64,000 nucleotides of DNA, taken from NCBI RefSeq assembly GCF_003319095.1, contig NZ_QOHI01000006.1, forward strand, positions 62,001 to 126,000, given 5' to 3'. The DNA is from Blastococcus sp. TBT05-19. GTDB lineage: Bacteria > Actinomycetota > Actinomycetes > Mycobacteriales > Geodermatophilaceae. Numbering within the stretch: position 1 is the stretch's first letter; each line of letters begins with the position of its first letter. Of this stretch, positions 54,875 through 64,000 are shown one piece after another. Below the pieces are notes generated by a model that was not told where the DNA came from, did not search any database, and saw only the letters and a program-made list of their open reading frames with translations. A program made the translations under genes and the position numbers.

Positions 54875-56557
54875 TCAGACGGCTGGCAGCGTGATCGACG
54901 ACGGCGCCGCACCGCCGGAGCAGATCCGGTGGGTGACCGGGACGCCGTGCGTGGCCTCGCCGACCGGCTCGCCGGTGCCGAGGTTGCGGGCGTAGCGCGG
55001 GTGCGCGCCGCCGGAGACCTGCAGCCGGATGCGGTGGCCGGCCCGGAAGCGGTGGGCGGTGTCGGGCAGCGTCGTCTCCACGACCCTCGGCCCCTTACTT
55101 GGCTGCTCAGCCGGCGCCGGATCGAGCCGGACGAGGCGGTCGGTGAGGTTGATCGACTTCCCGTTGGGCTCGACGTCGCAGATGCGGAGGAAGAGGTCGG
55201 CGTACGGGTTGTCCGACTCGATGTGCAGCCGGACCTTGACGCCACCCTGCACCTCGACGGGCTTGCGCAGCGCCGGGGTGGTGAAGGTCCGGACGTCGTC
55301 GCGCGCCTCGAGCTCGCGGTTGTCGCGCTGGCCGGCGCTGCCGGCGAGCACCCGGCCGCCGACCGACGGCGTCGGGTCCATCGGGTCGTAGCGAAAGGTT
55401 GTCTCCCCCGCCTCGGCCGGCGCCTCGTCCGCCAGCCGGCCGTCCGGGGCCAGGTACCAGGTGCGGTCGGCGGTGGCCGGCGGCCAGTCGGGCAGCTTGC
55501 GCCAGGTGCGGGCGCCGGTGACGAAGACCTGGACGCGGGCCTTGCGCGGCTCGGACGGCTCCGCGCCGGCGACGGGCAGGTGGGTGTTCAGCCAGGCGAG
55601 GCTCTCCGGCGTCGTGACCGCCGGATCGATGGCCAGGTGCGCCCACGGGCCGATGGTCATGCCGACGTCGACGCCGCGGTCGCGCAGGGCTGCGTACTGG
55701 TAGAGCGTCTGCTCGACGAACCAGTCCTGCCAGCCACCGATGAGCAGCGTCGGAACGGTGCTCGAGTGGACGGCCGGCGTCGCGCGGTACCGGTCCCAGT
55801 ACGGGTCCTCCAGGTCCGGGTGGGAGAGCCACTCGTCGAACCACGGTGCCGGGTTGCCGCCGAAGCGCTCGGCCAGCCCCTGCAGCGGCAGGTCACCGAG
55901 GAACGGGGTCAGCCGCTGCTCCGCCGTGCCCAGCCGGATCAGGCCGCGGAGGAACCCGACCTGCTCCTGGTGGGCGATGAGGTCGGTCCAGATGGAGAGG
56001 TTGGTGAGCTGGAAGGCGCCGTCGATCATCCCGGCCTGGGCGAGGTCGTGCGGCCCGATGTGCAGCACCATCGCCTTGAGCTCAGGTGGCGGGTCGAGGG
56101 CCAGGGCCCATTGCGTGTAGCCGAGGTAGCTGGGACCCAGGGTGGCGAGCCGGCCGTCGAACCAGGGCTGCTCGCGCAGCCAGACGACGGTGTCCTGCCC
56201 GTCGTGCTCCTCGTGGACCACGGGGCTGAACTCGCCGCCGGAGCCGAACGTGCCGCGCACGCTCTGCATCACCACGGCGTAACCGCGCTCGGCGAATGGC
56301 ACCGCCATCGAGACAGCGAACGCGGCGCCGCGGCCGTACGGCGACCGCAGCAGCACCGTCGGGTGCGGTCCGTCGGTCGAGGGCAGGTAGACGTCGGCGC
56401 GCAGAGTGGTGCCGTCGCGCATCGGGGCGTCCTGGTCGCGCAGCACCTTCACCGGTCCGAGCGGTGCCGGCAGCTTCCACCGGCGCCCGAGCGCCGCTGC
56501 GGCGAGGCGGGCGGCGCGGGGAAGCGGCTCCGCTGACGTACGGTCGAGCCGGGACAC
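54875..56557 (-). CDS. CocE/NonD-family (X-Pro dipeptidyl-peptidase-like) hydrolase
   Basis: A 560-residue alpha/beta hydrolase. The nucleophile lies in LGPSYLGYTQWA (GxSxxG), with the Asp and His later (GWQDWFVEQ, GPWAHLA). The C-terminal jelly-roll (LFLRICDVEPNGKSINLTD and RIRLQVSGGAHPRYARN) is typical of CocE. The N-terminal DAPMRDGTTLRADVYLP is a family mark. Cocaine esterase, acyl or peptide substrates are all possible. GTG 56557 follows GGAGG closely. It is the last ordinary chromosomal gene before the right-hand island. Confidence 0.9.
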   Translation of the reverse strand: MSRLDRTSAEPLPRAARLAAAALGRRWKLPAPLGPVKVLRDQDAPMRDGTTLRADVYLPSTDGPHPTVLLRSPYGRGAAFAVSMAVPFAERGYAVVMQSVRGTFGSGGEFSPVVHEEHDGQDTVVWLREQPWFDGRLATLGPSYLGYTQWALALDPPPELKAMVLHIGPHDLAQAGMIDGAFQLTNLSIWTDLIAHQEQVGFLRGLIRLGTAEQRLTPFLGDLPLQGLAERFGGNPAPWFDEWLSHPDLEDPYWDRYRATPAVHSSTVPTLLIGGWQDWFVEQTLYQYAALRDRGVDVGMTIGPWAHLAIDPAVTTPESLAWLNTHLPVAGAEPSEPRKARVQVFVTGARTWRKLPDWPPATADRTWYLAPDGRLADEAPAEAGETTFRYDPMDPTPSVGGRVLAGSAGQRDNRELEARDDVRTFTTPALRKPVEVQGGVKVRLHIESDNPYADLFLRICDVEPNGKSINLTDRLVRLDPAPAEQPSKGPRVVETTLPDTAHRFRAGHRIRLQVSGGAHPRYARNLGTGEPVGEATHGVPVTHRICSGGAAPSSITLPAV

Positions 56558-56610
56558 AGGACCTCCATGTGAGGGCGGTGCGGACACCGCTCCGGACCCT
56601 AGCCGTGGCT

Positions 56611-56690
56611 TTAGCTCGCGAGGTGTCCGGCCAGCCGGTCGAGGAAGGGCAGCTGAGCCTTGACCAGCTTCGTGGGGGCGGCCACACCCA
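56611..56690 (-). pseudogene. Truncated copy of a NUDIX gene 3' end
   Basis: On the minus strand this stretch encodes KLVKAQLPFLDRLAGHLAS and a TAA at 56611. It matches the C-terminus of the NUDIX protein at 51757-52218 (KIVKAQLPFLDRLAAHLAEA) at 15 of 19 aligned residues, and at the DNA level by about four fifths of bases (by eye). Nothing of the NUDIX box is left; only a Met 7 residues earlier could start it. It is a remnant of a paralogous gene that lost its 5' part, at the edge of the island that follows. Confidence 0.75.
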
Positions 56691-56852
56691 TGCCCACCAA
56701 GGGCGCGTTCCTGGATGCGCATGACCAAGGCATCCCACGTTGCAACGTCGCGCACGGCTCAACCAGGCCGGACCCCAGCCCGACGTGTGGGTAGCGCCTT
56801 ATGCCAATCGAGCCGGCGGGTGCTTATCGACCATCTGTGAGAGCTTCTGTCT

Positions 56853-57146
56853 GTGGCTCTGACACCCGGGCAAGGCGCACAACCGACAAGCGATGCTGAG
56901 GTGAGGGCGCAAGCTCAGCAGCTCTTCGATGACGCTGTTTCGCTCTTCAGCCGGACCGCGTCTCGCGCTATCCGACTAGGTGGCCGGCGGGATCACCCAC
57001 TGGTTCAAGCGGCCGAGGTTGAGATGCGAAGAGTGGAAGCAATCACCGTACAGCTTGGCGGCGGCACGGTGCCGATGAGTGACTTTGTCCGGCTTGTGAC
57101 CCAGATCAACGCCGCGACTGAACGCCTGACTCAAGACCTGCAGTAG
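56853..57146 (+). CDS. Small helical hypothetical protein at the island edge
   Basis: A 97-residue frame from GTG 56853. The product is mostly helical (AEVRAQAQQLFDDAVSLFSR, FVRLVTQINAATERLTQDL) with no known motif. Its bases are clearly less GC-biased than the genes to the left, as in the next three genes. Upstream GAGAG may act as a ribosome site. It points rightward, like the defence-type genes that follow, 162 bases before the helicase start. A link with them is likely but not shown. Confidence 0.6.
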   Translation: MALTPGQGAQPTSDAEVRAQAQQLFDDAVSLFSRTASRAIRLGGRRDHPLVQAAEVEMRRVEAITVQLGGGTVPMSDFVRLVTQINAATERLTQDLQ

Positions 57147-57308
57147 GACACCTGTGTCGCTCCGCTTGCGGTGGCCCTGCACGCACCGTCCGCTGCACGC
57201 CTGCTGCTGACGGGCCGACCGCTTGGAGCGATTGACCCGCGCCATCACCCAAGAAAGTGGTTGCGGTCACCTAGGGTTCCGGTTGTACCAAGCCGACGAA
57301 GGGTGATC

Positions 57309-60300
57309 ATGAGCGAGCACGGGGCACAGACGTCGAGATTTGAAGCGGCGCTGGCTGCGCGCCTAGAGGACCTAGTGCCTGGCGTCCGTGTCGCTGGGGC
57401 CGTCGGCAATACAACAGTCGACGTCGTCTCGACCAAGTGGCAGGGCGGCAACTTCGTCATCCTGACCTACACCGACGCGCATGGTCGCCCCGGGCAGACC
57501 GTGCTGGGTCGCGACCATGAGGCTGGTATGTCCCTGGTCAGCAGCGGTCGTACCCGAGCCTTCGACGGTGATGCCGACGCCTGGCGATTGGCCGCTGAGG
57601 CCCTGCGTATCCGATACGCCGCACTCTTCGACCCCATGCTGGCGATCTCCACGTCGGACCTTCAGGCTCTGCCCCACCAGATCACCGCCGTCTACAACGA
57701 GCTGCTCCCTCGGACGCCACTGCGTTTCCTGCTCGCCGACGACCCGGGCGCGGGCAAGACCATCATGTGCGGGCTCTACGTCAAGGAGCTGCTGCTGCGC
57801 GGCGACCTGGCGCGCTGCCTGATCGTCGCTCCGGGGAGCCTGGTCGATCAGTGGCAGGACGAGCTGTACGAGAAGTTCGGCCTGCACTTCGAGATCCTCA
57901 CCAGATCCCTTATTGATGCCAGCTTGCAGGGCAACGTCTTCGAGAACCAGCCGCTCCTGATCGCGCGGATGGATCAGCTGTCGCGCAGCGAGGACCTGAT
58001 GGCGAGCCTGGAGCGCTCGGACTGGGATCTGGTCGTCGTGGACGAGGCGCATCGCATGTCGGCTCACTACTTCGGCGGCGAGCTGAAGACGACGAAGCGC
58101 TATCAGCTGGGCCAATTGCTCGGCCGCGTCACCCGCCACCTGCTGTTGATGACGGCGACGCCGCACTCGGGCAAGCAGGAGGACTTCCAGCTCTTCCTGG
58201 CACTCCTCGACGGCGACCGGTTCGAGGGCAAGTACCGCGACGGCGTGCACACCGTCGAGCCGGCCGACCTCATGCGCCGCATGGTGAAGGAGGAGCTGCT
58301 CACCATGGAGGGCAAGCCGCTCTTCCCCGAGCGGCGCGCCTACACCGTTCCGTACGACCTCTCGGACGGCGAGGCGGAACTGTACGAGGCGGTCACGCAG
58401 TACGTCCGCGAGGAGATGAACCGCGCCGACAAGCTCAAGGCGCAGGGCGAGGGGCGGCGTGGCAACACCGTCGGCTTCGCGCTCACGGTCCTGCAACGCC
58501 GGCTTGCGTCCAGCCCGGAGGCGATCCTGCGGAGCCTCGAACGCCGCAAGGCGCGCCTGGAGAAGCGGCGCCGCGAGATGGCCAGCGGCGGCGACGACGA
58601 CCGCTCATTCAGGACGCGGGTTGACACGATTCTCGGGCGCGACGACGAAAACTTCGACGACCGGCTTGACGACCTCGGCGGCGGAGAGCTCGAGGAGCTC
58701 GAAGAGGACGTCGTCGACGCCGCCACGGCTGCTCGCACCATCGCCGAGCTCGACCACGAGATCGCCGACCTCGCCGACCTCGTCGAAATCGCCACTCGTG
58801 TCCGCCATTCAGAGACCGACCGCAAGTGGTCGGAGCTACGCGACCTGCTGACGGCGCACGACCTCATTCGCGACGCCAACGGCAGTCCGCGCAAGATCAT
58901 CATCTTCACCGAGCACCGGGACACGCTGAACTACCTCGTCGACCGGATTCGCACCCTGCTCGGCCGTGAAGAGGCCGTGGTCGCGATCCATGGTGGCGTC
59001 GGCCGGGAGCAGCGCCGCGCCGTCCGGGAGCAGTTCACGCAGGACGCCGATGTTCGCGTTCTGGTCGCCACGGACGCCGCGGGCGAGGGCCTGAACCTGC
59101 AACGAGCACACCTGATGGTCAACTACGACCTGCCCTGGAACCCGAACAAGATCGAGCAGCGGTTCGGGCGGATTCACCGAATCGGCCAGACCGAGGTGTG
59201 CCATCTCTGGAACCTGGTCGCGCGCAACACCCGTGAGGGCGAGGTATTCCTCAAGCTGCTGCACAAGATCGACGAGATGCGCCGTGCCTACGCCGGCAAG
59301 GTTTTCGACGTCCTAGGCGACGCCTTCGAGAACAACCCGCTGCGCGATCTGTTGATGCAGGCCATTCGCTACGGCGACCAACCCGACGTCCGGGCGCACC
59401 TCGACACGGTCATCGACGAGAGCGTGGGCCAGGGACTCGACGAGCTGCTCGCCGAGCGAGCGCTGCACCGCCAGGTGCTCGATGGCGGTGACGTCGAGGA
59501 GATCCGGCTACGCCTGGAGGAGGCGCAGGCCCGGCGCCTGCAACCGCACTTCATCGAGTCCTTCTTCTTGGACGCCTTCGCACGGCTCGGTGGCCAGCGG
59601 GCGCGCCGCGAGAGCGGGCGCTACCAGATTTCGCACGTGCCCGGCGCCATTCGCGACCGCGACCGCATGATCGGCATAGCGGCGCCCGTCCTCGCTTCCT
59701 ACGAGCGGGTGACGTTCAGCCGCGACAAGGTCACGGTTCCGGGCACCCCGCCCGCCGACCTCATCGCACCGGGCCATCCACTGCTGGATGCCGTCGTCGA
59801 TCTGACCATCGAGCGGCACCATGACAACTTGAAGACCGGCGCGGTTCTCGTCGATCCGAACGACCAGGGCGAGACGCCGCGGCTGCTGGTGGCGCTGACT
59901 GAGGAGATCACCGACGGTCGGCCGCAACCGCGAACGGTCTCCAAGCGCTTCGATTTCGTCGAGCTGCTGCCCAACGGCCAGGTGCGCCACGCGGGACCCG
60001 CGCCGTACCTGGATTACGAGAAGGTGCCAGACGACGCCCTGGCATCGATCGAGCAGGTCTTCGACCAATCTTGGCTATCTCGTGGCGCTGAGGAGATCGC
60101 CATAGGCTGGGCGATCGAGCACTCGCTGCAGGATCACCAGCGGCAGGTCACCGGGCGCGTGCTGCCGATGGTGGAACGCACTCGCGATCAGGTCCGCCGC
60201 AGACTCGGTGCGGAGATCAATTACTGGGACACCCGGCATGCCGAGCTGCTTGACCAGGAGGCGGCCGGCCGGACCCTAAAGATTCGCCCGGAGACGGCGC

Positions 60301-60866
60301 ACCGACGGGCCCGGGACTTGGAACGGCGGCTCGAGCGCCGACTGGCCGAGCTGGATGACGATGCTCGCCTGTCCGTGCGCCCGCCCACCGTTGCCGGCGC
60401 CGCCCTCGTACTTCCGCAGGGGCTGCTCGACCGGCTCACCGGACGGCGCGAGGAACCGGCGTCGACGTATGCCCAAGAGACGGCGTTCGTCGAGAGGCGC
60501 GCGATAGAGGCAGTCATGGCCGCCGAGCGCGCGCTCGGCCGGGCACCGCAGGAGATGCCGCACAACAATCCGGGCTGGGACATCAGGTCGGTAGCGCCCG
60601 ACGGTCAGGTGCTGCGGATCGAGGTCAAGGGCCGCATCTCCGGCGCCGACGACTTCACGATCACCCACAACGAGGTGCTGACCGCAAAGAATTTGGGTGA
60701 CGACTACCGTCTGGCGCTGGTTGAGGTCAGCCCCGAGGGTCCGGCGCATGACGAGGTTCGGTACCTGCTGCGGCCGTTCGACGGCACGAGCACCGATGAC
60801 TTTCGGGTGACCAAGCTGGTGCTTGGCTGGGCAAAGACGTGGCGGCAGGGCGGGTCGCCTCGTTGA
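57309..60866 (+). CDS. SNF2-type helicase with C-terminal DUF3883 nuclease-like domain
   Basis: A 1185-residue protein. The SF2/SNF2 core has Walker A DDPGAGKTIM near residue 144, DEAH in VVVDEAHRMS near 243, TATPHSGK, ATDAAGEGLNLQRA near 585 and QRFGRIHRIGQT near 617. A charged coiled region lies at 410-520. The C-terminus (about 1055-1165) is DUF3883 with GWDIRS and RIEVKG, a D...ExK pair like PD-(D/E)XK nucleases. Such proteins occur in defence islands next to DNA methylases and may be related to DISARM DrmD. ATG 57309 has GAAGG before it; upstream residues look non-coding. Confidence 0.9.
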   Translation: MSEHGAQTSRFEAALAARLEDLVPGVRVAGAVGNTTVDVVSTKWQGGNFVILTYTDAHGRPGQTVLGRDHEAGMSLVSSGRTRAFDGDADAWRLAAEALRIRYAALFDPMLAISTSDLQALPHQITAVYNELLPRTPLRFLLADDPGAGKTIMCGLYVKELLLRGDLARCLIVAPGSLVDQWQDELYEKFGLHFEILTRSLIDASLQGNVFENQPLLIARMDQLSRSEDLMASLERSDWDLVVVDEAHRMSAHYFGGELKTTKRYQLGQLLGRVTRHLLLMTATPHSGKQEDFQLFLALLDGDRFEGKYRDGVHTVEPADLMRRMVKEELLTMEGKPLFPERRAYTVPYDLSDGEAELYEAVTQYVREEMNRADKLKAQGEGRRGNTVGFALTVLQRRLASSPEAILRSLERRKARLEKRRREMASGGDDDRSFRTRVDTILGRDDENFDDRLDDLGGGELEELEEDVVDAATAARTIAELDHEIADLADLVEIATRVRHSETDRKWSELRDLLTAHDLIRDANGSPRKIIIFTEHRDTLNYLVDRIRTLLGREEAVVAIHGGVGREQRRAVREQFTQDADVRVLVATDAAGEGLNLQRAHLMVNYDLPWNPNKIEQRFGRIHRIGQTEVCHLWNLVARNTREGEVFLKLLHKIDEMRRAYAGKVFDVLGDAFENNPLRDLLMQAIRYGDQPDVRAHLDTVIDESVGQGLDELLAERALHRQVLDGGDVEEIRLRLEEAQARRLQPHFIESFFLDAFARLGGQRARRESGRYQISHVPGAIRDRDRMIGIAAPVLASYERVTFSRDKVTVPGTPPADLIAPGHPLLDAVVDLTIERHHDNLKTGAVLVDPNDQGETPRLLVALTEEITDGRPQPRTVSKRFDFVELLPNGQVRHAGPAPYLDYEKVPDDALASIEQVFDQSWLSRGAEEIAIGWAIEHSLQDHQRQVTGRVLPMVERTRDQVRRRLGAEINYWDTRHAELLDQEAAGRTLKIRPETAHRRARDLERRLERRLAELDDDARLSVRPPTVAGAALVLPQGLLDRLTGRREEPASTYAQETAFVERRAIEAVMAAERALGRAPQEMPHNNPGWDIRSVAPDGQVLRIEVKGRISGADDFTITHNEVLTAKNLGDDYRLALVEVSPEGPAHDEVRYLLRPFDGTSTDDFRVTKLVLGWAKTWRQGGSPR

Positions 60867-60959
60867 GTGCGGTGGCCAGGGTCGCGGATCTGGTGCTGCG
60901 GCTCATGGGTAGTCCCCAAACCAGCCGGAGCCACCCCGGCGGCTGCGCGGTTTACACGA

Positions 60960-60999
60960 AGTTTTGCGTTACCCTGAGCCCTCAGACTTACGCAAAACT
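60960..60999. promoter_or_regulatory. 40-bp dyad upstream of the AlbA_2 regulator gene
   Basis: AGTTTTGCGT (60960-60969) pairs exactly with ACGCAAAACT (60990-60999). An inner pair CTGAG/CTCAG (60974-60985) shares the same centre. It ends 12 bases before the GTG at 61012, in a 145-base gap after the helicase. It may be an operator bound by the regulator itself, or a hairpin in its mRNA leader. Confidence 0.65.
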
Positions 61000-61011
61000 C
61001 GGGGGAAACTT

Positions 61012-62751
61012 GTGACGCTTAAACCGTGGGTTGCAGGTGCCCTCCAGTCGGTGGAAGACGGCGCTCGAGCGAGCTCGGCGGAGTCCCCCACGCTGGATTT
61101 CAAGACGGACGGCCGATCTCCTGGGGACACCGCAGAGAACCTTGCGGAGGCAGCCGCCTGCTTCGCGAACGCGGCCGGCGGCTGCATCGTCGTTGGCGTC
61201 GCGGACCGGAAGGCAGGCCGCGATGCCTTCGTCGGAACGCAGCTCGACCCCAACCGACTGCAGCGGCGCATCTACGAGGTCACCTCCCCGCCCCTCATCG
61301 TCACGGTTGAGGAGCACAATTGGGCCGAGCAGCGGCTACTGGTGATTACCGCGCCGCGCAGTCCGGACGTTCACCAGGTGAAGGGCAAGGCCACCGAACG
61401 CGTCGGCACCGCATGCGAGCCAATGTCCGCGGTCCGGATCGCTGCGGTCGTGGCCGAACGGCGCGGCGACGACTGGTCTGCCGCCGATTCAGGAGTTCCT
61501 CGTTCGGCCGTCGTTGCCGGCACCCTGACAGAGGCACGACGGCTTCTGGCTGAGGCTCCAGATGCGGAGCGCCGCCGCTGGGCCGACAGCTCGGACCGGG
61601 ACATGCTCCGCCGCCTGGGTCTGCTCGCTACGGCGGGGACGCTGACGAACGCCGGAGCGCTGCTTCTGGTCGCGAACGAAGCAAGCCCCCTCATCTCATA
61701 CGTCCATCGCCGCTCTCGGTCCGGAGAGCTCTCGACGAACCAGCAGCTGTCTGCGCCGGGGCTTACCGCGCTGCTTCGGACCTTCGAGCTGATCGAGAAC
61801 CGGGTCGATCGCACACCGGTCAACCTGCCCAACGGCCAGCAACTCTTCATTGCCGACCTTCCCGACCTGGCGGTCCGCGAGGCAGTCGTCAACGCCTTCA
61901 TGCACCGGGACTACCAGTCGACCGGCATGGTGCAGATCGAGCACTCCAGCACGCGCCTCGCCGTGACCTCTCCAGGGGCGTTCGTGCTGGGTGTGACGCC
62001 CGAGAACATTCTCACCGTGAGCTCGCGGCCAAGAAATCCAGCGTTGGCTGGCGTGATTCGCCAGCTCGGCCTCGCCGAGACCGCTGGCGTGGGCGTGGAC
62101 CGCATGTACGCCGAGATGGTGAAGGTCGGTCACCAGCCACCGACATTCACAGGCGACCAGTTTCGAGTGGCCGTCACGCTGCATGGCGGAGCGCCCAATA
62201 CGGCGGTAACCCGGTTCGCCACGACCCTTCCCGAAGACCGACGATCCGATCCAGACACGCTGCTAGTCATGCTCGCACTGCTGGGAAAGCGCAATGTCAC
62301 AGCGTCCGAGCTAGCGCCCACGCTGCAGAAGGACGATGACGAGGTGGAGGCCATCCTCTTGCAGCTCGCAACCCCGGCGGTCGGCTTCATTGAGCGGACC
62401 CGCGAGTCAGCCAACGCACGCGCCGGCATCTACCGCTTGCGCGACCAGGCTGTCGCCGCCCTCGGACCAGCGGTTACTTACCGACGGCGGGTCAGCGACG
62501 ACACTGACCGCAAGGTCATCGAGATCGTCCGCGAAGCCGGACAGGTCAACGGCCGCATCGTGCGAACGCTCGTGGACGTAGACACGCCGACCGCCTCTCG
62601 CATTCTCGCCGATCTGGTGGACCGGCAGATCCTCGTTAAGACGTCCGAGGCGCAGCGCGGACCGTCCGTCACCTACGGCCCCGGCCCGCAGTTCCCTTCC
62701 TCCCGACCACGCAAGCGCAGCGCCAAGAAGCAGGAGTCCCGCAATGACTGA
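61012..62751 (+). CDS. AlbA_2 (Schlafen-like) DNA-binding / GHKL-like ATP-binding protein
   Basis: A 579-residue protein. AlbA_2 domain: residues 20-130, with PTLDFKTDGRS and FANAAGGCIVVGVADR. GHKL-like (HATPase_c_4) domain: about 280-380, with LAVREAVVNAFMHRDYQS, TSPGAFVLGV and TAGVGVDRMYAEM. A winged-helix segment ends the chain (TASRILADLVDRQILVK), followed by a basic tail. Proteins of this type act as ATP-sensing regulators or occur in defence clusters. GTG 61012 is preceded by GGGGGA. Its last eight bases overlap the next gene (ATGACTGA). Confidence 0.87.
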   Translation: MTLKPWVAGALQSVEDGARASSAESPTLDFKTDGRSPGDTAENLAEAAACFANAAGGCIVVGVADRKAGRDAFVGTQLDPNRLQRRIYEVTSPPLIVTVEEHNWAEQRLLVITAPRSPDVHQVKGKATERVGTACEPMSAVRIAAVVAERRGDDWSAADSGVPRSAVVAGTLTEARRLLAEAPDAERRRWADSSDRDMLRRLGLLATAGTLTNAGALLLVANEASPLISYVHRRSRSGELSTNQQLSAPGLTALLRTFELIENRVDRTPVNLPNGQQLFIADLPDLAVREAVVNAFMHRDYQSTGMVQIEHSSTRLAVTSPGAFVLGVTPENILTVSSRPRNPALAGVIRQLGLAETAGVGVDRMYAEMVKVGHQPPTFTGDQFRVAVTLHGGAPNTAVTRFATTLPEDRRSDPDTLLVMLALLGKRNVTASELAPTLQKDDDEVEAILLQLATPAVGFIERTRESANARAGIYRLRDQAVAALGPAVTYRRRVSDDTDRKVIEIVREAGQVNGRIVRTLVDVDTPTASRILADLVDRQILVKTSEAQRGPSVTYGPGPQFPSSRPRKRSAKKQESRND

Positions 62752-64000
62752 GCAGGTCCGCCGCAAGCTCATCGAGGTTGCCCTGCCGCTCGAAGCGATC
62801 AACCGTGAGTCCGCGCGCGAGAAGTCGATCCGGCACGGCCACCCCTCCACGCTGCACCTTTGGTGGGCCCGCCGGCCGCTGGCCGCCGCGCGAGCCGTCC
62901 TATTTGCGCAGCTCGTCGACGATCCGTCGGCCCGACCCGACGAGTTCCCAACGCAGGAGGCGCAAGACACCGAGCGGCAGCGCCTGTTCGCGCTAATCGA
63001 GGAACTCGTGAAGTGGGACAACTCGACCAATGAGAAGCTGCTAGCCGAGGCGCACGCCGAGATTCTCAGGTCGACGGACGGTAGCCCTCCGCCGATCCTC
63101 GATCCGTTCGCCGGCGGCGGCTCGATTCCGCTGGAAGCGCAGCGCCTCGGCTTAGACGCGCACGCGAGCGACCTTAACCCCGTAGCTGTGCTGATCAACA
63201 AGGCCCTTATTGAGATCCCGCCTAAGTGGGCGGGACGGCCGCCTGTCTTCCCCGGCGCGGCGGACGACGCCGCCGGCTACTGGCCCCGCGCTACCGGACT
63301 CGCCGAGGACGTGCGCCGCTACGGCGCCTGGATGCGCGACGAGGCGGAGAAACGAATCGGGCACCTGTATCCGAAGGCGACGCTCTCCGACGGGACCAGA
63401 GCAACGGCGATCGCGTGGATCTGGGCGCGAACCGCAATATGCCCGAACCCTGCCTGCGGCGCGGAGATCCCTCTGGCAAGCACGTGGTGGCTAGCCAAAA
63501 GCAAGGACCGGCGCGCGTGGATTCAGCCCGTCGTGGCTGATGGTCGGGTCGATTATGACGTAAGGACCGGCAACGGTGGGCCTGACGACCCGCCTAAGCA
63601 AGGACGTGGCGCTCGATTCACTTGCCTGGTGTGCCGAGACACAACCACTGACGCATACGTGAAAACGGAAGCGGCGGCGGGAAGAATGGGGGCGCGCCTG
63701 ATGGCGGTAGTTGCCGAGGGCGAACGGCAACGCGTCTACCTTCGTCCCGACGAGATTCATATGGGCGCGATCAACTTAGAACGCCCCGAGAACGCCCCCG
63801 ACGGGGAGATCTCAAGAAATGGCCGCTGGTTCTCCCCGCCCGCGTTCGGTCTGGCCAGGTTCGCTGACCTATTCACGAATCGCCAGCTAGTTGCGCTAAC
63901 GACATTTAGCGACCTCGTAGGAGACGTCCACAGTCTTGTCGAGTCGCACGCCTCGAACGCTGGGCTTGCCGCCACCGAGGCGCGCGCTTACGCGGATGCG
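62744..64000 (+). CDS. DUF1156 (COG1743-type) DNA methylase, cut off by window edge
   Basis: At least 419 residues, still open at 64000. The N-terminal DUF1156 pattern is RRKLIEVALPLEAINRESA and HPSTLHLWWARRPLAAARA. The S-adenosylmethionine motif I is ILDPFAGGGSIPLEAQRLG, then SDLNPVAVLINKAL. A zinc-ribbon insert has CPNPACG and CLVCRD pairs. The catalytic NPPY-type motif is not yet reached. It would methylate adenine (or cytosine) in DNA as the self-marking part of a defence system. Two TTA leucine codons (63152 and 63776) are rare for this genome. ATG 62744 overlaps the previous stop. Confidence 0.9.
   Translation, partial: MTEQVRRKLIEVALPLEAINRESAREKSIRHGHPSTLHLWWARRPLAAARAVLFAQLVDDPSARPDEFPTQEAQDTERQRLFALIEELVKWDNSTNEKLLAEAHAEILRSTDGSPPPILDPFAGGGSIPLEAQRLGLDAHASDLNPVAVLINKALIEIPPKWAGRPPVFPGAADDAAGYWPRATGLAEDVRRYGAWMRDEAEKRIGHLYPKATLSDGTRATAIAWIWARTAICPNPACGAEIPLASTWWLAKSKDRRAWIQPVVADGRVDYDVRTGNGGPDDPPKQGRGARFTCLVCRDTTTDAYVKTEAAAGRMGARLMAVVAEGERQRVYLRPDEIHMGAINLERPENAPDGEISRNGRWFSPPAFGLARFADLFTNRQLVALTTFSDLVGDVHSLVESHASNAGLAATEARAYADA

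What the first reader, a model, noticed from the sequence alone, without database searches (positions are those of the whole stretch)
56853..64000. Right-edge putative defence island: SNF2-DUF3883 helicase, AlbA_2 regulator and DUF1156 methylase
Four rightward genes with less GC bias than the rest pair a DNA helicase carrying a nuclease-like end with a DNA methylase and an ATP-binding regulator. Helicase plus COG1743-type methylase is a known defence-island pairing; class 1 DISARM is one possible relative. The AlbA_2/GHKL-like protein, placed between them and overlapping the methylase by 8 bp, is not a standard DISARM part and may define a distinct variant. The rest of the system is outside the window.
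Basis: partly seen in the sequence, partly recalled or inferred. Interest (0 to 1): 0.75.

Follow-up and report, generated by a model that had tools for sequence, protein, structure and literature searches.

The report
Hma defence operon with self-controlled Schlafen
The window's right edge is the start of a known kind of bacterial anti-virus gene cluster (Hma: helicase, methylase, ATPase) that carries extra genes inside it, one of them a Schlafen-type gene that seems to bring its own on/off switch.

Summary
The genes are real, and the contig beyond 64000 supplies the missing part: a DUF499 ATPase with an N-terminal HEPN domain. Helicase, DUF1156 methylase and ATPase score 1483, 1088 and 866 bits with PADLOC's HmaA, HmaB and HmaC: an Hma system (renamed Type-1 BREX-related), not DISARM. 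Two modules are embedded: the AlbA_2/GHKL/winged-helix gene between hmaA and hmaB, and a GmrSD-like nuclease plus a HEC-07-like protein between hmaB and hmaC. Such embedding is published. New here: the AlbA_2 gene probably starts at GTG 61012, not TTG 60964, behind a perfect 10+10-base inverted repeat (60960-60999). Repeats of that strength precede 23 of 36 scorable family genes outside a second embedded clade (own included), 0 of 5 in that clade, and 47 of 285 other genes. An 84%-identical copy stands alone, without hmaB, near the matching right-flank gene in another genus. Its carboxylates align with Schlafen RNases. I read it as a mobile, self-regulated Schlafen RNase lodged in an Hma operon, itself in an insertion hotspot. 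System known; self-regulation is a testable new reading.

The parts
57309..60866 (+). hmaA: SNF2 helicase with C-terminal NOV_C (PD-(D/E)XK-type) domain, 1185 aa
   Evidence: PADLOC HmaA 1483 bits over nearly the whole profile; Pfam SNF2/Helicase_C/NOV_C; DEAH, QRFGRIHRIGQ and D...ExK motifs present; start ATG 57309
60960..60999 (+). 40-nt perfect inverted repeat (10+10-base arms), operator- or hairpin-like, ending 12 bases before the Schlafen start
   Evidence: found once in the window, and its left half once in the whole genome; repeats upstream of relatives
61012..62751 (+). embedded Schlafen-type gene: AlbA_2, HATPase_c_4 and C-terminal part described as winged-helix in published relatives, 579 aa
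   Evidence: Pfam SLFN_AlbA_2 56.4 bits and HATPase_c_4 61.7 bits; PDB 3lmm match; family profile matches animal Schlafens, triad E24/D29/D65; start corrected
62744..64000 (+). hmaB: DUF1156 adenine-type methylase; continues to 65503 outside the window (919 aa)
   Evidence: PADLOC HmaB 1088 bits for the full protein; DPFAGGG and DPPY motifs. The operon goes on outside the window (same numbering): GmrSD-like 65500-67428, HEC-07-like 67428-69293, HEPN-DUF499 hmaC 69306-72650, SNF2 helicase 72653-75397, HNH nuclease 75435-76340

Best explanation
This is a complete Hma system, which a 2026 paper renames Type-1 BREX-related: a restriction-modification-like defence. The methylase marks the cell's own DNA, the DUF499 ATPase complex inspects incoming DNA, and the helicase-nuclease destroys unmarked DNA, with the HEPN end of the ATPase as a possible suicide RNase. 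Inside it sits a Schlafen-type gene that probably arrived as a separate unit with its own promoter/operator. Its winged-helix part probably binds the 40-base inverted repeat before its own start and holds expression down; when triggered, its AlbA_2 part probably cuts tRNA or other RNA. Because it overlaps hmaB and all genes to the second SNF2 gene are tightly packed, release of this inner promoter would also raise hmaB and the downstream genes. Shown: the parts, order, homology, motifs, repeat, hotspot and stand-alone relative. Inferred: self-DNA marking, operator binding, RNase activity, the trigger and the effect on downstream genes.
For: HmaA/B/C profile scores 1483/1088/866 bits. 59 of 60 loci holding all three genes keep the order A-B-C on one strand. 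HEPN_Swt1+DUF499 in hmaC. Defence role of the family and its Type-1 definition from passages and one section of PMC12839542 and passages of PMC8565338. Schlafen: the triad lines up with E205/E210/D248 of rat SLFN13 (residues from passages of PMC5862951; the numbering match is mine). Operator-like repeat: 16 of 24 family genes (window's own included) reach IR score 8 and 7 of 12 more scored afterwards, against 47 of 285 other genes in the same loci. In seven 40-nt elements 16 cells change on both arms together, 0 of 500 shuffles. Packing: overlaps of 8, 4 and 1 bases, then gaps of 12 and 2.
Against: No function was tested. 8 of 24 and 5 of 12 scored family genes, including the embedded gene of G336 (L118) and more distant stand-alone genes, fall below the repeat cut-off, and none of 5 scored genes of the second embedded clade has the repeat, so self-regulation is not general. 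The seven elements were picked because they are 40-nt inverted repeats, so their pairing is partly by selection; near-copies are among the scored genes. The second carboxylate is Asp where SLFN13 has Glu, and alanine there abolishes SLFN13 cleavage. The AlphaFold model was too poor to use (mean pLDDT 49). The full repeat occurs once in the window and its left half once in the genome, not before hmaA, so control of the whole system is not indicated. PMC8565338 predicts HmaB as an m5C enzyme, whereas PADLOC and PMC12839542 call it an adenine methylase.
Confidence: 0.72

Rival explanations
1. The Schlafen-type protein is only a suicide RNase effector of the Hma/BREX-related system; the inverted repeat is an RNA leader hairpin or promoter feature, not the protein's operator.
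For: PMC12839542 treats Schlafen-kinase-wHTH genes (at least 1017 taxa) as backup RNases of BREX/BR loci (passages). Carboxylate triad kept. The leader folds as a hairpin.
Against: Repeats of different sequence at a similar place in different subfamilies fit paralog-specific binding sites, though covariation alone cannot tell a DNA palindrome from an RNA hairpin.
Confidence: 0.3
2. The AlbA_2 protein is purely a transcription regulator without nuclease activity.
For: Operator-like repeat before many members; Asp for Glu in the triad of most of the actinobacterial group; no hmaA, hmaB or hmaC beside the gene in 39 of 40 loci fetched for Schlafen relatives (five of those loci gave no match to the window's Schlafen protein).
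Against: E, [E/D], K and D are kept in at least 15 of 16 rows and the profile matches animal Schlafens (E 1e-13 for SLFN14).
Confidence: 0.25
3. Class 1 DISARM or a DISARM-like variant.
For: DrmD-type profile matches to both SNF2 helicases and a DrmA match of hmaA, and an adenine-type methylase.
Against: No DrmB or DrmC listed and no PLD or DUF1998 domain among the proteins scanned; HmaA/B/C fit far better.
Confidence: 0.02
4. The order is a chance pile-up of unrelated genes in an insertion hotspot.
For: The site is a hotspot with changing cargo; the HNH gene at its end has strong relatives in other cargo at this site.
Against: A-B-C order in 59 of 60 loci, overlapping genes, and A-Schlafen-B again in G336. 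It may hold for the HNH gene and perhaps the second SNF2 gene.
Confidence: 0.05

Closest known systems
Hma system (PADLOC; PMC8565338) = Type-1 DUF499-centred BREX-related system (PMC12839542)
   Same: Helicase with C-terminal nuclease, DUF1156 methylase and HEPN-DUF499 ATPase in that order
   Different: Here with a Schlafen-type gene between A and B and a GmrSD-like/HEC-07-like pair between B and C at once; none of the 59 census loci has this set (no HEC-07-like gene inside any)
Hma-embedded candidates HEC-05/06/07 (names in PADLOC; Payne et al. 2024 preprint seen only as cited in PMC11411939 and PMC12988326)
   Same: GmrSD-like and HEC-07-like genes lodged in an Hma operon
   Different: Scores are weak (51 and 67 bits); here both are adjacent, and the HEC-07-like protein ends in a stretch resembling NsnC
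Schlafen-kinase-wHTH genes of BREX/BR loci (PMC12839542); PDB 3lmm
   Same: Same architecture linked to core loci; 3lmm matches residues 21-458 of the 595-aa reading
   Different: The window gene has its own inverted-repeat leader and a stand-alone near-copy; neither point appears in the passages I read
Defence regulators BrxR/CapW, C proteins, RptR (passages of PMC12255303)
   Same: A DNA-binding regulator coded inside or beside a defence operon
   Different: Those are not described there as carrying an RNase-like domain

Membership tests
Hma / Type-1 BREX-related | SNF2 helicase HmaA with C-terminal REase | tested here: met
   1483 bits HmaA; NOV_C with D...ExK
Hma / Type-1 BREX-related | DUF1156 adenine-type methylase HmaB | tested here: met
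   1088 bits, DUF1156, DPPY
Hma / Type-1 BREX-related | DUF499 ATPase HmaC, often with HEPN | tested here: met
   866 bits HmaC, HEPN_Swt1 and DUF499
Hma / Type-1 BREX-related | No DUF3780 gene (marks Type-2) | tested here: met
   none in Pfam among the proteins scanned
Hma / Type-1 BREX-related | Phage defence | not testable with these tools
DISARM class 1 | drmB (DUF1998) and drmC (PLD) | tested here: not met
   no DrmB/DrmC listed and no such Pfam domain among 11 distinct proteins, 57.2-82.3 kb; the rest of the genome not searched
Schlafen AlbA_2 RNase | AlbA_2 domain | tested here: met
   PF04326 56.4 bits, cut-off 25.3
Schlafen AlbA_2 RNase | Three catalytic carboxylates E..E..D | tested here: met
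   E24, D29 (Asp for Glu), D65
Schlafen AlbA_2 RNase | RNA cleavage | not testable with these tools
   needs a biochemical assay
GmrSD type IV enzyme (protein at 65500-67428) | DUF262 motifs QR, DGQQR, FxxxN and an H..N nuclease end | tested here: met
   GmrSD_N 95.5 bits; QR 28, DGQQR 87, FEKVN 238, IHHVFP 502; Pfam found no DUF1524, the nuclease end is read from the motif
HEC-07 (protein at 67428-69293) | Match over the whole HEC-07 profile | tested here: inconclusive
   67 bits over residues 77-302 only

The most novel reading that the evidence does not exclude
The AlbA_2-GHKL-winged-helix family is a mobile, one-gene 'toxin and its own repressor': each subfamily binds its own inverted repeat (about 40 bp in the window's group) in front of its start, which keeps a Schlafen RNase silent until infection. 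In actinobacteria such units have entered Hma operons with their switch, creating an inner promoter that couples Schlafen release to higher methylase and ATPase expression; a second clade has lost the switch and become fused into the hmaA transcript.
Probability: 0.4. Interest if true: 0.62.

Novelty: new member of a known kind. Interest (0 to 1): 0.42.

Why it matters
It settles that the edge cluster is an Hma system and turns the odd gene in it into a concrete question: whether prokaryotic Schlafens regulate themselves through a repeat before their own start. One gel-shift would test that, and a positive answer would explain how a cell carries an RNA-cutting gene safely and how it can move into other defence operons.

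Tried and rejected
DISARM (see membership test). A conserved upstream small protein: no clear relative among 71 small ORFs from 25 loci (best E 0.17). A viral-contig source for the Schlafen or HEC-07-like proteins: none found with the patterns used. An AlphaFold model of the Schlafen protein: mean pLDDT 49, not used for fold searches. A solved-structure relative of the HEC-07-like protein: only coiled-coil-type chance matches, best E 0.42; of the GmrSD-like protein: none at E 0.1.

An early reading that Hma-embedded Schlafens form Hma-only clades (2 changes against 8.1 in shuffles) was dropped for the window's clade when G809 was found: the stand-alone copy lies inside it (100/99), and an embedded-only clade is rejected (p 9e-55).

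Whether G809 is the relic of a lost Hma operon stays open: after the shared stop codon only 12 bases agree (10 of 12) with the start of hmaB.

In the census, L062's A-B Schlafen and L020's Gmr gene were missed by the script's overlap rule and are visible; the six loci counted for AlbA_2 are the script's own. Four hits of the wider Schlafen profile (one each in L050, L065, L070, L073) carry a different N-terminal domain and are not counted as AlbA_2; L007 has only the C-terminal part.

Repeat test: one search took 34 genes; one was dropped for N bases and four for lack of the E-x4-[DE] motif, leaving 24 plus 5 of the second embedded clade. It had left out 18 loci in hand (near-copies or weaker matches). 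I scored these afterwards: 6 lack the motif, 12 were scored, 7 pass (L174, L181, L183, L184, L185, L209, L263), 5 do not (L198, L203, L204, L206, L207). The control uses mechanical gene starts.
Full report
What is there. The window is G000:C18:62001-126000. Reading on past 64000 gives, in window numbering: hmaA 57309-60866; Schlafen-type gene 61012-62751; hmaB 62744-65503; a GmrSD-like gene 65500-67428; a HEC-07-like gene 67428-69293; hmaC 69306-72650; a second SNF2 helicase 72653-75397; an HNH nuclease 75435-76340. All have intact frames on the + strand. From the Schlafen gene to the second SNF2 gene the spacing is -8, -4, -1, +12 and +2 bases; from hmaA to the Schlafen gene it is +145. Enoyl-CoA hydratase (named from its sequence and neighbours, not from a family scan) and other genes follow on the other strand. 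GC is 66.1% for the block, 73.9% to its left and 71.6% to its right.

What system it is. The three core proteins score 1483, 1088 and 866 bits with PADLOC HmaA, HmaB and HmaC; the ATPase has HEPN_Swt1 and DUF499 domains. NCBIfam's own antiphage DUF499, DUF1156 and DrmD models match too, but below their cut-offs. Payne et al. 2021 (PMC8565338, passages) named Hma: 1,638 instances, 26 phyla; they predicted HmaB as an m5C enzyme. [quoted passage not shown] DISARM's drmB and drmC, and DUF3780, were not found among the proteins scanned. GenBank plasmids show the bare three-gene form in [Kitasatospora] papulosa, the three genes in broken annotation in Rhodococcus opacus PD630, and, in Gloeocapsa, other genes including an AAA ATPase/DUF4435 pair between A and B.

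Census. One search returned the 80 loci most like the window's HmaB out of 381. Of the 80, 60 hold A, B and C (over 300 bits each), and 59 keep A-B-C on one strand; in L026 the helicase is turned round. A gap over 600 bases lies between A and B in 39 of 59, between B and C in 23 of 59, in both in 16, in neither in 13. So embedded genes are common. AlbA_2 genes lie inside 6 of 59: L051, L052, L079 (A-B) and L017, L044, L062 (B-C). Gmr-like genes found by the script lie in L029, L030, L069 (A-B) and L017, L018, L027 (B-C). A HEC-07-like gene is inside none of the 59. The gaps total 178,610 bases. In 60 relatives' genomes AlbA_2 matched 19 times, which at 4-5 Mb each is about one per 13 Mb. Those genomes are not the census genomes, so this is only a rough sign that embedding is not chance. 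Outside the census, G336 (same order) has hmaA-Schlafen-hmaB with a 57%-identical Schlafen; its hmaB is split over two contigs and hmaC lies on the second.

The Schlafen-type gene. Pfam gives SLFN_AlbA_2 and HATPase_c_4; the C-terminal winged helix is taken from the published description of the architecture, no domain model hit it here. The best solved relative is 3lmm, an uncharacterized protein (E 1.2e-40). A profile of 16 AlbA_2 domains matches SLFN14, 5yd0 (listed as Schlafen 8) and SLFN11 (E 1e-13 to 3e-11). Counting from GTG 61012, E24 is in 16 of 16 rows, position 29 is E or D in 15 of 16 (Q in L052), and D65 is D in 15 of 16 (E in L041). By the printed alignments they fall on the triad that Yang et al. 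2018 (PMC5862951, passages) call E205, E210 and D248 of rat SLFN13, where mutation of any of the three diminishes cleavage; that 5yd0 is this protein with a shifted numbering is my inference. The window has Asp at the second place, as do most members of its actinobacterial group.

Its own switch. Aligning the window with its 84%-identical relative in G809 showed that the shared stretch begins about 15 bases before TTG 60964 and holds an inverted repeat ending 12 bases before GTG 61012; the G809 frame opens only at the matching GTG, with a stop in the leader. Repeats with other arm sequences lie before many relatives. A repeat score of 8 or more was reached by 16 of 24 (3 embedded of the window's clade, its own gene included, and 21 stand-alone) and by 0 of 5 of the other embedded clade, by 7 of 12 further genes scored later, and by 47 of 285 other genes in the same loci (Fisher p 3e-7 for 16 of 24, relatedness ignored). 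Below the cut-off were L118, L178, L186, L189, L200, L260, L261, L266 and L198, L203, L204, L206, L207. Of the 23 that pass, 15 end 68-89 bases before the E codon and 8 end 109-132 before it. Seven elements of exactly 40 bases, chosen for that, have 95.7% of cells paired, 6 of 10 pairs changed on both sides and 16 such cells; shuffles reach this 0 of 500 times (further pair types 20 of 500) and slid versions fall to 22-46% paired. The left half occurs once in the genome at up to 3 mismatches, none in the control. In the second embedded clade, L051 and L079 overlap hmaA by 4 bases instead.

Mobility. Trees put the window gene with G336, L007 and L017, all Hma-embedded, and with G809, which stands alone. 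The data reject an embedded-only clade. G809 gave no match to HmaB, although the same query found 10 of 60 genomes including the window's own. Its Schlafen lies about 8.5 kb from the gene that also flanks the window's island on the right. Homology runs from 60949 to 62782, hardly beyond the gene and its leader.

Hotspot. The left flank (hydrolase 54875-56755, -) and right flank (enoyl-CoA hydratase near 77.1 kb, -) lie on one contig, with a long hydrolase match of at least 68% identity, in 12 of 23 genus genomes, 0.6 to 50 kb apart: G298 0.6 (empty), G314 10.9, G297 12.9, G308 15.4, the window 20.4, G304 24.2, G316 28.6, G317 36.5, G305 38.9, G299 41.9, G311 44.2 (hydratase only 67% identical), G306 50.0. 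Several genomes have further hydratase copies; distances use the best one. Left out are G307 (39% identity, some 350 kb apart) and 10 genomes with the two on different contigs or with only partial or distant matches. G308 carries another hmaB-hmaC there, next to C5-methylase, GHKL, DUF4420 and Z1 genes; G314 a type ISP enzyme; G297 an N4/N6 methylase and an AAA_5 ATPase. So the island is variable, largely defence-type cargo at a fixed site, in the three islands whose genes I identified.

Mechanism and limits. I commit to the restriction-modification-like Hma model, with a self-controlled Schlafen RNase lodged inside. Identity of the system is close to certain; self-regulation is likely but untested; coupling of the inner promoter to hmaB is inference from spacing. 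No paper with this repeat turned up in the one search aimed at it (listing of 12 of 435) or in the other Schlafen searches (listings). The library holds almost no preprints; the Payne 2024 and Taboada 2025 preprints were seen only as citations.

Noticed in passing
window 56760 to about 77100 (beyond 64000 outside the window): Insertion hotspot between a hydrolase and an enoyl-CoA hydratase gene: 12 of 23 genus genomes have both on one contig, 0.6 to 50 kb apart, with R-M-type cargo in the three islands looked at.
   Followed up: partly
65500-69293 (outside the window); L010:16044-20184; L110: The GmrSD-like and HEC-07-like genes recur as neighbours (L010 after hmaC; L110 in reverse order). The HEC-07-like protein ends in an NsnC-like stretch and the GmrSD-like one begins NsnA-like, hinting at a link with PADLOC's Nsn system (Menshen, name recalled).
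   Followed up: partly
L211-L218: Relatives of the HEC-07-like protein occur on 9 actinobacterial plasmids (8 viewed), in at least two cases near replication or helicase genes; function unknown.
   Followed up: partly
72653-75397 (outside the window); L021, L026, L027: A second SNF2 helicase follows hmaC; relatives with 506-565 bits lie directly beside hmaA in 3 of 80 census loci.
   Followed up: no
L065:5246-6781, L070:8150-9709, L073:8139-9725: Same GHKL and C-terminal parts but a different N-terminal domain (LRIFVSSVQKE type; DUF4062 by recall) in place of AlbA_2, also between hmaA and hmaB.
   Followed up: no
L050:3154-9936: Four genes of this kind (three with AlbA_2) stand in a row just before hmaB; no hmaA in the 10 kb seen.
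   Followed up: no
L223 (G308): hmaB and hmaC at the same hotspot with no hmaA detected, beside C5-methylase, GHKL, DUF4420 and Z1 genes.
   Followed up: partly
75435-76340 (outside the window); L225, L230: The HNH nuclease has relatives with over 500 bits in other cargo at the same hotspot and resembles a phosphorothioate-DNA restriction enzyme only in its HNH half; probably not part of Hma.
   Followed up: partly
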